The translations under genes and the position numbers were made by a program. From assembly GCF_003316695.1 (NCBI RefSeq), contig NZ_PDKB01000008.1, forward strand, positions 1 to 64,000: a stretch of 64,000 nt of DNA, in the 5' to 3' direction. Numbering within the stretch: the first letter of the stretch is position 1; each line of letters begins with the position of its first letter. The notes below the pieces were generated by a model. It was not told where the DNA came from. It worked only from the letters and a program-made list of their open reading frames with translations, and ran no database searches. Positions 6,076 to 21,810 of this stretch are shown piece after piece. The stretch is from Aliarcobacter vitoriensis (GTDB lineage: Bacteria > Campylobacterota > Campylobacteria > Campylobacterales > Arcobacteraceae).

Positions 6076-6191
6076 ATTTTATCCTTATATTAAATATTAA
6101 AAATTTCATTGTATCATAAAAAATTGTAGAATATTTAAAAATATTTAGATACTAAAAAAGTGAATTTGGAAATCAAAAAAACACTATTTTT

Positions 6192-6206
6192 GTTACCAAA
6201 AGTAAC
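6192..6206. promoter_or_regulatory. Palindromic site GTTAC-N5-GTAAC upstream of the TonB receptor
   Basis: Perfect 5-bp arms (6192-6196 and 6202-6206) around CAAAA, about 65 bp upstream of a -10-like element and 111 bp before the receptor start. Dyad symmetry and position suit an operator. No regulator gene is adjacent, so its protein is unknown. Confidence 0.4.
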
Positions 6207-6270
6207 TTCAGCTAACAAATTTGAAAATTCTTTTGTAAAAATTGTCCATTTTTTTCATTTAAATCGTCTT

Positions 6271-6293
6271 ACTATATAGAGAAACAAATTCTC
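6271..6293 (+). promoter_or_regulatory. Probable promoter -10 and dyad before the TonB receptor
   Basis: ACTATATAG (6271-6279) is a -10-like element after a T-rich stretch, as usual for this group. It is followed directly by the dyad GAGAA-N5-TTCTC (6279-6293), which would fall at or near the transcription start. AAGGATT before the ATG is the ribosome site. Confidence 0.4.
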
Positions 6294-6316
6294 AAAATTA
6301 ATACAAAGGATTTAAG

Positions 6317-8699
6317 ATGAAAAACAAAGTTTTCATTTCAGTTTTAGCATCAATGATGTTAAGTGGAACAATGTTAAATGCAAAAGATATAAGTTTGCAA
6401 GAAGCAGTAGAGAATATAGTAAAGAAATATAATGTAACATATATTTCAAAAGCTAATAACCTTAAAGATAAAAGTATAAATTCGCAAAAAGTGAGTTTCG
6501 GGGGGGGGTACGGTATTAAGTAATCTAAATAGCGTACTAGAAGAACATAATCTCAAAGCTATCGAAGAAGATAGCATAATTTACATAATAGAAAAACCAA
6601 AATATCAAAACTTTGGTAATACTACTGTTTTAGATGAAATATCTGTTTCTAGTTCTAATTATAAAAATGGAAGTGCAGAATCAGGCTACCTTGTAGAAGA
6701 AACAAAAGGTGTTGGTATTTGGAATGAAAGAAAACTACAAGACACTCCATACTCAATGAGTATAATCTCAAAAGACTTAATCGAAAATGTACAAGCAAAA
6801 GATATGAATCAAATATTTAAGATGAATCCTACTACACAAGAATCAACTAAAGCAACATACGGTAATGGGGATAGTTCATTTCCTATAATGAGAGGATTTT
6901 CAGTAAGTGTTCCCATAGTAAATGGAATACCTTATGCCGATAGTATTGTTAGTACCCCTATGATGCAAGATATAGAAAGAGTAGAAATCATCAGTGGAGC
7001 AACAGGATTTTTATATGGTGGAGGGAGAGTTGGTGGAGCAGTAAATTATATAACTAAAAAACCAACTACAAAAGATTTAAGAAATGTAACTATTGGAAGT
7101 TATGGAAACGAATCATATTATGGACATATAGATTTAGGTGGACAGTTTAATGAAGATAATACTCTTGGATATAGAATAAATGGATTTTATCAAGATGGAG
7201 AACTGCCAAATGAATCTAAAAAAGAACAAAAGAACATTAGTTTAGTATTTGATTGGAAACCTACTGATAATTTTTATACAGATATAAAATATTCATATAA
7301 AGATAGTTTAGAAAAAGGGATAGCTCCTATTTTTAGTACATGGAAAACAGTAAAATTGGATAGAGCAAGTATAACAAAAAATAAAAGTTATAGTCCTGAT
7401 TGGTTAGAGAGTGAGATAAAATCAAATAAAATAGAAAACAATATAAGATATGATATAAATGATATTTTTACTTTAAGAACAAATCTATTTTACGAAGATA
7501 TGAAATATAAAGGAAGTTCTTCTGTACTATCTGTACAAGATGGGAATGCAATTGGAATCATAAATGGAAATTCTAATTCAGATTTTTCGAGGAGTGGTTG
7601 GCAACAATCAAAGAGTAATGGTGCAAATATCTATTTTGATTCAAAATTTGATACAGGAAGTATAAATCATACTTTGACAATGGGATATAGTTTAAGTGAG
7701 TGGAAAAATTACCGTTCATCTGATAATTGGTCATATTATCGTTTACCGAATGATACGAGCTTAAATGACTTAAAAAACTTAACAGAAAATGTTTCTCTTT
7801 GGACTAACAATGGTATTGTAGGAACTCAACCAAGAAAAATTGCTTTAAAAACTGAATATAATAATATTTTAATTGGAGATGATATAGTTTTCAATGACCA
7901 ATGGAGTGCATTAGTTGGAGCAAATTATGCAACTATTATGAATAAAACATATTCTACAAATACAAAATATGATGTATCAGAACTAACTCCTACTTTATCT
8001 CTTATATATAAACCATTTGAAAATCTTACAACTTATGCCACTTATATAGAAAGTTTAGAAGCTGGAACAATAGTAGGAAGTTATTATCAAAATGAAAATG
8101 AGATATTAGATCCATATAAAAGTAAACAATATGAAATTGGTGCAAAATATAGTTTATTTGATAATAAAGCACTTTTAACAGCTTCATTGTTTAGAATAGA
8201 AAAAGCAAGTCAATATATAGATAATACAACAACACCGAAGCCAACTTTAACTCAAGATGGTGAACAAATACATCAAGGTCTTGAACTAGGACTTACTGGA
8301 AAAGTTACAGATAATTTAACTTTAATGTGTGGAGTAACATTTATGGATTTAAGTTTGGAAAAAGCAGATAATCCAGCTTTAGAAGGTAAAAAACCAACTT
8401 TAGCAGCTACAAAAATGGCAAAACTTTTTGCAGAGTATAATATTCCATATATAAATGGATTATCTATAAATGCAGGAGCTTATTATACTGGTAAACGATA
8501 TGGAGATAATCTTAATACGGATATTCTACCAAGCTATACTTTATATGATGCAGGACTTAGATATAAAACTAAGTTAGATAAATATCCTACAACTTTTAAT
8601 ATAACTGTACAAAATTTAACAGATAAAGGTTATTGGACAAATAGTTCATTATTAGGCGATCCTAGAACTATTGCATTTTCTATGAAAATGGAGTTTTAG
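6317..8699 (+). pseudogene. TonB-dependent siderophore receptor, out of frame at a poly-G tract (probably phase-variable)
   Basis: The first frame (6317-6523) gives a signal peptide (about 1-22) and the start of an STN domain, then runs through a G9 tract (6500-6508) into a stop after GYGIK. Dropping one G, or adding two, joins it to a second frame that reads TVLSNLNSVLEEHNLKAIEE, completes STN, and continues without a stop through plug (PIMRGFSV, VEIISGATGFLYGGGRVGGAVN) and beta-barrel to a terminal Phe (KMEF). The repaired protein is 793 aa, normal for FecA/FpvA-type outer-membrane receptors that import ferric siderophores. STN normally signals to a FecR/FecI pair, and none is in the window. 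As sequenced the gene is OFF. A start at ATG 6756 would lack the export signal. Confidence 0.88.
6500..6508 (+). repeat. G9 homopolymer inside the TonB receptor gene
   Basis: Nine consecutive G in DNA that is otherwise very AT-rich. It sits in codons ~62-64 of the receptor. G8 or G11 restores the full reading frame; G9 and G10 do not. Such tracts are the classic slipped-strand contingency loci of Campylobacterota. Confidence 0.95.
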
Positions 8700-17114: not shown

Positions 17115-19334
17115 TTAGAATTTATATATATAATCAAGAGATACAACATTGTTGTTATATTTGCTTCCTTCTCCTTGATATTTATAAGAGAAGTTTAAAT
17201 TATTTTGATTATTTAGATTTACATCGTATCCTATTCCTGCTTGGTATTGCCATCTACCATTGTCTATACCATTTGTATCAAATGAAACTCCAGAAGCTCC
17301 AGCAAAAGAAGAAGTTACGATATTGTCATCATTTTTAAAATCATATCCAGCACCGATTGTAGCAGTTAGTTTAGAATCAGAAGTGATTTTATACTCAAAA
17401 TCTGCTCCAAAATTTCCTAAAAATTCAGATGAAGTGAATTTATCAGAGTGAATATTTAAAGCTTCTGCACCATTTTCTGTATATGATGGATTTGAAATAT
17501 GTCTGTAAGTTGTACCAATATTTGGCTCTACTGAAAAACTATCATTTATAGCTATTTTATGTCCAACTTTTAAATCAAGAGCAAAAGTTTTACTAGTAAA
17601 TTTAGCATCTGCTCTATCTCCTGTAAATAAACTTCTTTTACTATCATTTTTTTGCCAAGTATATGAACCTTGATAGTAAATAGTTGTTTTATCATCTGGT
17701 AATAAATTGCTTCCATATGCTACAAGAGAGTAAGCATCTACATCATTTTCATGATTTACACCATTTGTTTCTACATTTGCATTTGTATAGAATGTTGAAA
17801 GTCCAATAATTTGCCCATCTTTATACTCTTTATCATATCCAAGCCCTAAACCATAAGTTTTTAAATCAAATCCAGAGATAGAGTCTTTATCTTTTTGTTC
17901 TCCAATACTTCCAAATGCTTTTACCCATACTCTATTGTTATCAACTTTTAAATCATCTCCAGAGTTTAAACCACTTTTTAAGTTTTCTAATCTACTTGAA
18001 ACAATATTTGATATGTTTGAAGTTATAGTATTTGAACTATTTACAACTGATGTTGCTGTTGTTGGAATCATAGAATTTACAGCATTTATAACTTCATTAT
18101 TTGTACTTAAAGTATCAATTTGTGATAAAATTGCACCCATTTGTGGATGTTGAGCTTGATTATTTCTAAATTCATCTAAAGTTTTTGCAATAGATTTTTT
18201 ATTAACTATATTTTTAGTATCTGTACCATTGCCTTTATCATCACCTTTATCTTTATCATCAACAATATCAGACAATTTTTTTACATTACTTACAACTAAA
18301 TCTAGTTGGTTTTTATTTTGTTTATATTCAAAATCTAAAGTTGCAGAGTTATCAGCTAATTTTGTTTGGTTTAAAGTTAAATCATTGATTGTTAATTTAT
18401 CTGTTGCTGTTACAACTTCACTTAATGTATCTCCTTTAACAAATGCTTTTGAACCTGCTACTATATCAACTTGCATTTTTGAACCTTTTCCAAAAGTAGC
18501 AGTTTTTGTTAATATTTGTGTATTTTCTATTTTATTATCAGAGTGTTTAAAAGCTCCAATTTCAATAGTTCCATAATTTTCAAGATTTGCTAAATTTGGT
18601 TGAAGAGATATAGTTGTATATACACCATCATCATCAAATGAAAAAGTTTCTTTTTTAGTTGCATTATATGGTAAAGAGATAAATCCTTCATTTTTAAATA
18701 AACCATAATTATTTTTATTGTTATATACATTCATTAAAATATTTCCATAAATTTTCCCATCTTTTGTATTTGTTACAGTAACTGTTGGAGTTGAATTTAG
18801 ACTAAATCGTATTTTATCACTAGTGATTGCTAATCCCTGTTTGTCTAATTTATTATTACTAGTAGCTTTGATGGTTCCACTATTTATAATAGATGAATCT
18901 ATCAAACTACCAGTTCCAATAGCTTCTGATAAAAAGTATCCTGAACCATTACCATTTGCATTTACTAAAATAGTACCTTTGTTTTCAATTTGAGTATTAT
19001 CTACATCATCTATCCAAATTCCTACGGCATCACTAGATTTTGTTCCCGTTGTATTTGCTTTTATTGTTCCAGTATTTATAATTTTTGAATTAGAGATATA
19101 CTCTATACCCATTGCTTCAGAATAAGCTTCACTACTACTGTGATTTACAGAAATTTCTCCATTATTTATAATTTCTGAATTTGATACATTTTCTAATTCA
19201 ACTGCCATTCCACCACTATTTTTAATAATATTGCTATCATTTGTCCAATTATTAGCAGAAAGTGAAACTGCCCCTAAAAGCATAGTTGAAAGTAAAAAAG
19301 ATACTTTATTTTTTTTTGAATAATCTATTTTCAT
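17115..19334 (-). CDS. Autotransporter (type Va) with C-terminal beta-barrel
   Basis: 739 aa. A signal peptide occupies residues ~1-28 (SFLLSTMLLGAVSLSA). The passenger, ~30-300, is built of short Asn/Gly/Thr repeats such as NSEIINNGEISV, NSKIINTGTIKA and NTQIENKGTILV, the signature of a right-handed beta-helix. A Lys/Asp/Gly-rich linker lies near 345-370. Residues ~460-739 are the autotransporter barrel (RVWVKAFGSIGEQ onward) ending in Phe (LDYIYKF). Likely an exported adhesin or surface protein, with no protease or lipase motif. Its promoter contains paired YCACA half-sites. AAAGGAGAAAA is the ribosome site. Confidence 0.87.
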   Translation of the reverse strand: MKIDYSKKNKVSFLLSTMLLGAVSLSANNWTNDSNIIKNSGGMAVELENVSNSEIINNGEISVNHSSSEAYSEAMGIEYISNSKIINTGTIKANTTGTKSSDAVGIWIDDVDNTQIENKGTILVNANGNGSGYFLSEAIGTGSLIDSSIINSGTIKATSNNKLDKQGLAITSDKIRFSLNSTPTVTVTNTKDGKIYGNILMNVYNNKNNYGLFKNEGFISLPYNATKKETFSFDDDGVYTTISLQPNLANLENYGTIEIGAFKHSDNKIENTQILTKTATFGKGSKMQVDIVAGSKAFVKGDTLSEVVTATDKLTINDLTLNQTKLADNSATLDFEYKQNKNQLDLVVSNVKKLSDIVDDKDKGDDKGNGTDTKNIVNKKSIAKTLDEFRNNQAQHPQMGAILSQIDTLSTNNEVINAVNSMIPTTATSVVNSSNTITSNISNIVSSRLENLKSGLNSGDDLKVDNNRVWVKAFGSIGEQKDKDSISGFDLKTYGLGLGYDKEYKDGQIIGLSTFYTNANVETNGVNHENDVDAYSLVAYGSNLLPDDKTTIYYQGSYTWQKNDSKRSLFTGDRADAKFTSKTFALDLKVGHKIAINDSFSVEPNIGTTYRHISNPSYTENGAEALNIHSDKFTSSEFLGNFGADFEYKITSDSKLTATIGAGYDFKNDDNIVTSSFAGASGVSFDTNGIDNGRWQYQAGIGYDVNLNNQNNLNFSYKYQGEGSKYNNNVVSLDYIYKF

Positions 19335-19536: not shown

Positions 19537-19545
19537 GGGGGGGGG
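19537..19545 (+). repeat. G9 homopolymer at the start of the sensor-kinase gene
   Basis: A second run of nine G, 11 bases before ATG 19557. G8 or G11 would join the frame that follows the AAGGAG site (from ATA 19490) to the kinase; G9 does not. If ATG 19557 is the real start, the tract lies in the leader at a position where it could affect initiation. Confidence 0.93.
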
Positions 19546-19556
19546 TAACATCTTAT

Positions 19557-21155
19557 ATGCCAAAATCATCAACATTTTTATTTATTGTAATTATTATATT
19601 TCTAATAACTATATTTGCAAGTTATAAATTATTGTTAATCAATATAAATGATAATCACCAAAAAAACCAACAGATAGCTTTTTATGAAATACAAAAAGGA
19701 ACGAGTTATTTTTTAACTAAACTTTTGTATAAATTTTCAAATCAAAAAGAAGAGTTAATAAAAAAGCATAAAGAAGTTTTAGCTTATCTTAAAAATAAAT
19801 CATCTGATATAAATTTGATTGAAATATATGAAAAAATAAATCAAGATGTAGCAAATAAACCTTACAATATTTATATAACTGATGAAAATTTGGTGATTAA
19901 AAATAGTACATATTTAACAGATGTAAATTTTGATTTAAGTTTTGCAAAAGAGTATTTTGAAGAGCATAAGCAAAACAATATTATAGGAGCTTCTCTACCA
20001 ATATTTGAAATTTATTCTTCAAAATTCTTTAGTTATACAGATTCATATTTAGATGATAAAAGAGTTTTACAAGTTAGTTTTACTTATGAAGAGTTAGAAA
20101 AAGATTTAAAAAATCTCCAAGATTTGATAAGCCAAAACCCAAATATTAAAAGTTCAGATGCTTTTATATTTAGTAAAGATTATGTTGGTGATTTTATGTT
20201 TAAATCTTTAAAATCATATAAAAAAGATTTAGTAGCAATTCAAAAAAGAATCAGTGATGGTAAAAAACTAGCTTAAGATTTAGAAGAAAATGAGTATATA
20301 ACACAATATATAGAAGATGAAAATTTCAAAATAACATATTTATCAGAAAAAAGTCCTATTTTTGATGAAGCAAAAATTATTTATACTATTGTATTTGATG
20401 AAACAAAATTAAAAGAAAATATCTTTTTATTAAATTTTATAACGCTTTTGATAGCTTTGATAGGCTCAATTACAATTTTTGTGATTTATAAAGTAAGAAG
20501 AAAAGAGAATATTTTAAGTTATAAAGATAAATTTATAGAACACTCTATTCACGAAATAAAAACTCCACTATCTATAATAAATCTAAATTTACAACTCAAA
20601 AATGAAGAGTTTGGAGAAGATAGTTATTCCAAAAAGATGGAAGGAGCTATAAGAACTTTAAAAAACTCGTATGAAGATATGACATTTTTACATATAAAAT
20701 CGAAGTTAGATTATAAAATAGAGAGTTTGAGTTTAGAAAATATTTTAAAAGATAGAGTAAAATATTTTGAACTTATAGCAAAAACACAAAATAGAAATTT
20801 ACAATTGGAAATATCAAATGATATTTTTATCAATATTAGTAAAATTGAGATAGAAAGATTGATAGACAATAATATATCAAATGCTATAAAATACTCAGAA
20901 ATAGGCTCAAATATAGAGATAATTTTAAAAGATAATAGTTTAAAATTTGTTTCTCAAGGTGAAAAAATAAAAAATGTTAATACTATATTTAAAACATATA
21001 TGAGGGAAAATGTAAGTTTGGGTGGACATGGAATAGGTTTATCTATTGTAAAAGATATATGTGATAAGTACAAAATTAAAATTGATGTAGTTTCAAATGA
21101 AAATATAAATATTTTTTCATATAACTTTAAATTGTCACACCAATACCACAAGTAA
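19557..21155 (+). pseudogene. Sensor histidine kinase interrupted by an in-frame stop, poly-G at its start
   Basis: One reading frame, 19557-21155, broken only by TAA at 20274-20276. Both sides translate as continuous kinase sequence. There are two membrane segments, the first at ~6-28 and the second just after the break (LLNFITLLIALIGSITIFVIY), with a periplasmic sensor region between. Then come the H-box HSIHEIKTPLS (His codon at 20550), the N-box DNNISNAIKYSE, and GGHGIGLSIVKD of the ATPase domain; a clear G1 box is missing. After the stop there is no in-frame ATG, only TTG 20448. As sequenced the kinase is probably inactive unless the stop is suppressed or a sequencing error. Its partner regulator follows after 16 bp. 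Confidence 0.85.
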
Positions 21156-21171: not shown

Positions 21172-21810
21172 ATGAAGAAAATATTTTTACTAGAAGATGA
21201 TTACTCACTAAATGAAACTATAAGGTTTATGCTAAATAAAAATGGTTTTATTGTAGATAGTTTTTATAATGGAGAAAAAGCATTTGAACATATTTTAGGT
21301 GAATATTCTTTGTATATTTTGGATATAAATGTTCCAAATATAGATGGATTAACAATCTTAGAAAAAATTAAAACTACAAATCCAAACTCAAAAGTTATAA
21401 TAATAAGTGCAAATATAGATATAGATAAAATAACCCAAGCTTATGAAAAAGATTGTGATGACTATATAAAAAAACCTTTTGATATAGAAGAGTTTAGATT
21501 AAAAATAAGAAAAATAACAAATTCTTTTGACATAATACAATTAGATTCTAATGTATCTTTTAATATGAAAAATAGAATATTGTATGAAAATAATCAAGAA
21601 ATTACTCTTACAAAATCTGAAAAAATCTTGTTGTATTTACTATTAAATAATAAAGGTGAAATGATAACTCATCATCAAATAGAAGAGTTTGTATATTTGG
21701 GAGTTGCAAAAACTTCCACTGCGATACGAACTTTAATTAAAAGAGTTAGACAAAAGCTTCCAAAAGATACTATTTTAAATATATTAGATGAAGGTTATTA
21801 CATAAAGTGA
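21172..21810 (+). CDS. OmpR/PhoB-family response regulator
   Basis: 212 aa. The receiver domain has the acidic pocket Glu8-Asp9-Asp10, phospho-acceptor Asp51 (LYILDINVP), Ser79 and Lys101 (KKPFD). Residues ~125-212 are a winged-helix effector (LTKSEKILLYLLLNNKG ... TAIRTLIKRVRQKLP ... EGYYIK). It pairs with the kinase upstream and probably controls the autotransporter and the hydrolase through direct repeats 11 bp apart (inference). It is intact although the kinase is not. No clear ribosome site precedes the ATG, so translation may be coupled or leaderless. Confidence 0.92.
   Translation: MKKIFLLEDDYSLNETIRFMLNKNGFIVDSFYNGEKAFEHILGEYSLYILDINVPNIDGLTILEKIKTTNPNSKVIIISANIDIDKITQAYEKDCDDYIKKPFDIEEFRLKIRKITNSFDIIQLDSNVSFNMKNRILYENNQEITLTKSEKILLYLLLNNKGEMITHHQIEEFVYLGVAKTSTAIRTLIKRVRQKLPKDTILNILDEGYYIK

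What the first reader, a model, noticed from the sequence alone, without database searches (positions are those of the whole stretch)
6317..8699. TonB receptor gene switched OFF by a G9 tract in its STN domain
A run of nine G at 6500-6508 breaks an otherwise intact 793-aa receptor. Deleting one G or adding two restores one uninterrupted frame from signal peptide to terminal Phe. Homopolymer G tracts are the known contingency mechanism in Campylobacterota, so this is probably ON/OFF switching of siderophore uptake or of a phage/bacteriocin receptor. The tract falls inside the STN signalling domain, which is unusual placement.
Basis: partly seen in the sequence, partly recalled or inferred. Interest (0 to 1): 0.75.

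Follow-up and report, generated by a model that had tools for sequence, protein, structure and literature searches.

The report
Thirty iron receptors with G-tract switches
The interrupted receptor gene is one of about thirty iron-siderophore receptor genes in this bacterium that each carry a slippery run of G's near the start, so that cells can probably switch single receptors on or off at random; nearly all are off in the sequenced consensus, and 22 of them share the same copied 'promoter plus switch' front end.

Summary
In detail: G9 at 6500-6508 truncates the receptor after 68 codons, while the other frame stays open to a terminal Phe. The interpretation (ON/OFF contingency switch) is well supported but not proven, and the finding is larger than reported. 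This Arcobacter-like genome has 33 runs of at least 8 G (about 0.08 runs of at least 9 expected); 30 lie in TonB-receptor genes: 22 in an STN-like N-terminus, 8 in the signal peptide. Twenty-five of the 27 not cut by contig ends keep an intact 660-743 aa downstream frame, and close OFF/OFF pairs show dN/dS of about 0.3-0.4, so a fixed pseudogene is unlikely. At the assembled lengths only two are ON. The 22 STN-type copies share a 5' cassette (dyad, promoter, signal peptide, half STN, tract) on diverged receptors at scattered sites, with recombination across the tract. A sister species has the same module as G10 (ON), G8 (OFF) and an interrupted 9-mer (OFF). One cassette follows a fecI-fecR pair. 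Each mechanism is known (compare HmbR/HpuA in Neisseria); the cassette-borne, mostly OFF receptor repertoire is the new part, in a genus whose first genome reported no poly-G tracts. Within-species length variation could not be tested.

The parts
6190..6207 (+). Dyad TTGTTACCAAAAGTAACT (arms GTTAC 6192-6196 / GTAAC 6202-6206), the 5' edge of the shared cassette; possible operator
   Evidence: Conserved in every STN-type copy whose 5' side is assembled; upstream of it the copies are unrelated. 23 exact copies in the genome, none exact in six of seven relatives searched.
6242..6293 (+). Putative promoter: TTGTCC (6242-6247), CGTC (6265-6268, ECF-like -10) and inverted repeat GAGAA-N5-TTCTC (6279-6293, Fur-box-like)
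   Evidence: Near-invariant in all copies; similar layout upstream of tract-free receptors of this and related genomes. Function inferred from motif resemblance only.
6317..6523 (+). Truncated reading frame at G9 (68 aa): signal peptide plus first part of STN-like domain, then stop
   Evidence: Direct reading.
6500..6508 (+). G9 tract, the presumed slipped-strand switch; OFF in the assembled sequence
6190..6628 (+). Whole shared 5' cassette (dyad, promoter, signal peptide, half STN, tract, about 120 nt after it)
   Evidence: Sliding identity to the other copies drops abruptly at the upstream edge and falls off after about 120 nt downstream.
6509..8699 (+). Receptor body out of frame with the start: rest of STN-like domain, plug, barrel, terminal Phe
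   Evidence: Pfam Plug and barrel; TIGR01783 over cut-off; no stop.

Best explanation
The gene is a TonB-dependent siderophore receptor under translational phase variation. Replication slippage in the G tract changes its length by one; only one length class in three joins the signal peptide to the receptor, and the assembled genome holds an OFF length. It is one of about 30 such receptors. In 22 of them the switch sits in a shared 5' cassette (dyad, promoter, signal peptide, half of an STN-like domain, tract) that has been copied onto different receptor bodies at scattered loci by recombination; in 8 the tract is in the signal peptide. Shown: sequence, frames, cassette edges, mosaicism, intact downstream frames, different lengths and states in a sister species. 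Inferred: that tracts slip in living cells, that cells then differ in receptor set, and that this hedges between siderophores or surface-directed threats.
For: 33 runs of at least 8 G in this genome, 30 in TonB-receptor genes; about 0.08 runs of G9 or longer expected. 25 of the 27 receptor loci not cut by a contig end have an intact 660-743 aa downstream frame ending in Phe. Close OFF/OFF pairs: dN/dS 0.27-0.40 for the six closest. Sister species G014 carries the same module with G10 (in frame, 787-aa open frame), G8 (out of frame, further decayed) and GGGGGAGGG (out of frame), the first two with identical near flanks. Two copies with a 1-nt upstream indel have a shifted ON length. Four-gamete mosaic across the tract. 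The G9-dominated spectrum is what Campylobacter contingency tracts show: 9 = 53%, 10 = 26% (PMC6321876), and other Campylobacterales genomes here look alike. Switching frequencies 0.004 (G8) to 0.02 (G11) in C. jejuni (PMC4965091). Poly-G phase variation of TonB-dependent haemoglobin receptors HmbR and HpuAB is established (PMC3786947).
Against: No reads and no second genome of this species were available, so length variation within the species is unshown. 30 of 33 tracts are exactly G9 and only 2 of 30 receptors are ON; free drift among three frames would give about 10 (P 0.0007 if independent, though copies share ancestry).
Confidence: 0.82

Rival explanations
1. Programmed expression from a fixed G9: transcriptional slippage or ribosomal frameshifting at the tract makes a minority of in-frame product from every receptor, so the genes are weakly ON rather than OFF and the length is kept at 9 by selection.
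For: Striking uniformity at G9 in this genome and purifying selection on 'OFF' genes.
Against: Two receptors are in frame at G9 and two tracts are G10; the sister species has G10 in frame and G8 out of frame on near-identical flanks; a G9 mode is general in Campylobacterales.
Confidence: 0.08
2. Fixed pseudogenes: the receptors were inactivated by the tract and are decaying.
For: No STN-type copy is in frame at its present length; a few copies are further broken (C12:36943, C63:110175, G014:1462763).
Against: 25 of 27 assessable loci keep about 700 open codons and the terminal Phe; dN/dS well below 1.
Confidence: 0.04
3. Assembly or base-calling error of one G: the true lengths are one shorter and the receptors are ON.
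For: The genome is a 66-contig draft and several contigs end inside the cassettes; raw reads were not available.
Against: No general homopolymer problem: intact window ORFs contain twelve A/T runs of 8-9. A uniform error of one base would put the two G9-in-frame receptors out of frame. The G7/G8/G9/G10 counts 4/1/30/2 match a real peak at 9.
Confidence: 0.05
4. The tract is chiefly a recombination or cassette-exchange site, and the frame effect is a side product.
For: All four combinations of upstream and downstream haplotypes across the tract; the cassette sits on strongly diverged receptor bodies.
Against: The same kind of tract arose in signal peptides with other flanks; exchange could use any part of the cassette.
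Confidence: 0.03

Closest known systems
HmbR and HpuAB haemoglobin receptors of Neisseria meningitidis
   Same: TonB-dependent receptor systems switched by a poly-G tract in the reading frame (PMC3786947)
   Different: One or two haem systems per genome and no shared 5' cassette described there; here about 30 siderophore-type receptors, 22 with one copied promoter-plus-switch module, mostly OFF
Campylobacter poly-G phasome (e.g. C. jejuni)
   Same: Poly-G tracts with a mode of 9, in-frame switching, 18-39 phase-variable genes per C. jejuni strain (PMC6321876)
   Different: Those tracts lie often in LOS and capsule loci (PMC2147049) and 'TonB' does not occur in the PhasomeIt main text; here 30 of 33 are in TonB receptors
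FecA-FecIR type transducer receptors (PF07660 STN with ECF sigma and FecR)
   Same: Six receptors of this genome lie near fecI-fecR pairs, have STN-type N-termini and no tract; one tract cassette lies directly after a fecI-fecR pair
   Different: None of the tract-bearing STN-like loci has fecI/fecR as nearest assembled neighbour, and the module's N-terminus is below the Pfam STN threshold
Bacteroides SusC/SusD phase variation (from memory, not tested)
   Same: Many TonB receptors switched stochastically in one genome
   Different: There by DNA inversion, here by homopolymer slippage

Membership tests
Simple-sequence contingency locus (translational phase variation) | Pure repeat tract in the reading frame, far longer than chance | tested here: met
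   G9 at 6500-6508
Simple-sequence contingency locus (translational phase variation) | Tract length decides between full-length and truncated product; downstream frame intact | tested here: met
   dN/dS
Simple-sequence contingency locus (translational phase variation) | Tract length differs among isolates of the species or among reads | tested here: inconclusive
   Only cross-species homologues differ (G10, G8, interrupted 9-mer in G014); no second genome or reads of this species; viral, plasmid and phage collections empty
Simple-sequence contingency locus (translational phase variation) | Reversible switching shown experimentally | not testable with these tools
   Needs culture
TonB-dependent siderophore receptor (TIGR01783) | Profile match above curated cut-off, plug plus barrel | tested here: met
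   275.6 bits against 223.5; PF07715 and PF00593
FecA-type transducer receptor | N-terminal STN domain (PF07660) | tested here: inconclusive
   No Pfam hit on in-frame relatives; hhalign 98.1% to STN N-termini of FecIR-associated receptors, one of which hits PF07660 above cut-off
FecA-type transducer receptor | Adjacent fecI-fecR | tested here: not met
   Window neighbours are a 2-hydroxyacid dehydrogenase and an unassigned ORF; no FecI/FecR as nearest neighbour of any tract locus whose flanks are assembled; one contig-end cassette at C2:92045 does follow fecI-fecR

The most novel reading that the evidence does not exclude
A two-layer receptor repertoire: one fecI-fecR pair (contig C2) controls the shared promoter of about 25 dispersed receptors, while each receptor's own G tract, resting at an out-of-frame length of 9, gates translation. 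Iron or siderophore signalling would then transcribe all receptors, but each cell would display only the few whose tract has slipped.
Probability: 0.25. Interest if true: 0.82.

Novelty: new variant of a known kind. Interest (0 to 1): 0.62.

Why it matters
It would be a large set of phase-variable outer-membrane transporters in a genus first described as lacking poly-G contingency genes (PMC2147049). It shows a way such switches can multiply: a promoter, signal peptide and switch module copied onto new receptor bodies. A genome annotated as full of broken receptors would instead hold a reserve of selectable ones, which affects predictions of siderophore use and of sensitivity to phages and siderophore-drug conjugates.

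Tried and rejected
The single genome-contig scan gave only Thauera, Acinetobacter and Lysobacterales relatives, no further genome of this species. Search for the tract with its flanks in viral contigs, and of the cassette in plasmids and phages: nothing. Pfam STN on the module: no hit. Idea that uniform G9 is peculiar to this genome: rejected, other Campylobacterales show the same mode, one as uniform (G8:G9:G10 = 2:25:0). Idea that G9 always means OFF: rejected, two signal-peptide-type receptors are in frame at G9. Idea that no cassette is linked to fecIR: rejected, one is. The Bayliss 2012 paper on mutational patterns was not held.

Full report
OBSERVATION. The window holds G9 at 6500-6508. 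From ATG 6317 the frame ends at TAA 6521-6523 (68 aa); another frame is open from the tract to TAG 8699 with a terminal Phe. Pfam finds Plug and barrel, NCBIfam TIGR01783 TonB-siderophor at 275.6 bits against a cut-off of 223.5, and the nearest solved structures are FemA and BauA, with FhuA and FoxA further off.

GENOME CONTEXT. The organism is Arcobacter-like: the genus set includes G006, whose second contig (189043 bases, receptor at 137910-139799) has the same length and match coordinates as an Arcobacter cloacae plasmid record. The draft genome (2.43 Mb, 66 contigs) has 33 runs of at least 8 G: 30 G9, 2 G10, 1 G8; about 0.08 runs of at least 9 are expected. It also has 38 TonB-receptor matches, including fragments. 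Reading each tract puts 30 of 33 in receptor genes: 22 in an STN-like N-terminus (context TTC-Gn-TAC) and 8 inside the signal peptide (mostly TGC-Gn-TAAC). The other three are one upstream of a histidine kinase in this window and two outside any evident receptor.

ON AND OFF. In the 22 STN-type loci the present length is out of frame wherever the start is assembled and the downstream frame long enough to judge, including two (C7, C18) with a 1-nt upstream indel that moves the in-frame length. The start is missing at one contig-end locus (C5) and the downstream frame is cut at C15, but both have the same flanks. Of the 8 signal-peptide loci two (C8:33264, 762 aa; C44:38480, 730 aa) are in frame at G9. 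So 2 of 30 are ON. Twenty-five of the 27 loci not cut by contig ends keep 660-743 open codons ending in Phe. Pairwise dN/dS between close OFF copies is 0.27-0.40 for the six closest pairs; much of that divergence may predate the tract, so it shows long-term constraint rather than present expression.

THE CASSETTE. Aligning the STN-type loci shows near-identity from a dyad TTGTTACNAAARGTAACT, about 110-125 bp before the ATG, through promoter, signal peptide and half the STN-like domain to about 120 nt after the tract. Upstream of it copies are unrelated; downstream they diverge, to chance level over the stretch compared for the most distant bodies. The exact dyad occurs 23 times in this genome: 19 at tract loci and 4 at contig ends that run into a cassette. 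A 20th tract locus (C15) and a fifth contig end (C65:129664) have one mismatch, and two tract loci are cut before the dyad. There is no exact copy in six of seven relatives and one in G030. The exact tract context is absent from 103 other genomes of the family. Upstream types A/B and downstream types a/b occur in all four combinations (Aa 6, Ab 2, Ba 7, Bb 6), so recombination has most likely occurred across the tract. Neighbouring genes are unrelated housekeeping and other genes: the cassette is dispersed.

RELATIVES. In sister species G014 (single contig) the same module occurs three times: G10 in frame (787-aa open frame), G8 out of frame with further stops, and GGGGGAGGG out of frame but otherwise open. 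The G003 homologue has no tract and is open. Homologous tracts thus differ in length and state on near-identical flanks, as slippage predicts and a fixed-length expression device does not.

WHY G9. Other Campylobacterales show the same mode; counts of G8:G9:G10 are 1:30:2 here, 2:25:0 in G135, 12:32:1 in G073, 14:30:8 in G086 and 2:18:16 in G212. In 77 Campylobacter genomes 53% of poly-G tracts are 9 and 26% are 10 (PMC6321876). A mutational resting length of 9, with the cassette frame set so that 9 is out of frame, would explain why nearly all copies are OFF; this is inference.

REGULATION. Seven fecR genes of the usual size exist, each with a fecI where the flank was read. Six lie near tract-free full-length receptors with STN-type N-termini (two with a few genes between), and one pair (C2:90578-92012) lies directly before a cassette that runs off the contig end. 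The cassette promoter has TTGTCC and CGTC elements and a GAGAA-N5-TTCTC repeat like those upstream of several tract-free receptors. One ECF sigma factor could therefore control all cassettes; this rests on motif resemblance and one adjacency. The cassette N-terminus is related to STN by profile comparison (98.1%, E 9e-14) but fails the Pfam test, so it is not filed as a FecA-type transducer.

ARTEFACT CHECK. Intact ORFs of the window contain twelve A/T runs of 8-9 without frameshift, and a uniform error of one base would break the two receptors that are in frame at G9. An assembly error is unlikely but needs reads.

VERDICT. A real, probably phase-variable receptor, one of about 30, with a recombined 5' switch cassette. 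The mechanism class is known (HmbR/HpuA; Campylobacter). The scale, the cassette, and its presence in a genus whose first genome was reported to have no poly-G tracts are the new parts. No paper describing this in Arcobacteraceae was found in the library, which holds only openly licensed papers.

Noticed in passing
window 19537-19545 and 19557-21155 (+): A second G9 lies just before a sensor histidine kinase gene whose homologues in relatives align from the same MPKSST-like motif; the kinase also has an in-frame TAA at 20274-20276 absent from the relatives. A response regulator (21172-21810) follows and an autotransporter (17115-19334, minus strand) is divergent.
   Followed up: partly
G000 C8:33264 (L121) and C44:38480 (L073): The only two phase-variable receptors in frame at the assembled length; both have the tract in the signal peptide.
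   Followed up: yes
L172 (G000 C2:88500-92330): fecI-fecR pair directly followed by a copy of the tract cassette, cut by the contig end; candidate master regulator of the cassette promoter.
   Followed up: partly
Downstream of receptors at C2:67945, C10:18698, C64:24960, C4:40344, C14:27141: A recurring gene family (proteins beginning M-E-[DE]-L-S-N-L-V-V-Y-N-D-G-E-L-E) follows at least five receptor genes, with and without tract.
   Followed up: no
L061 (Thauera sp. Sel9), L062 (Acinetobacter sp. S54): Receptor bodies 55-58% identical to the window receptor in distant proteobacteria, suggesting horizontal transfer.
   Followed up: no
L085 (G014 C1 near 438 kb): Interrupted tract GGGGGAGGG, out of frame with an otherwise open receptor: looks like a switch frozen in the OFF frame.
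   Followed up: partly
Ends of contigs C2, C16, C20, C44, C65 of G000: Five contigs end inside cassette copies, so the number of STN-type receptors (about 25-27) is an estimate.
   Followed up: partly
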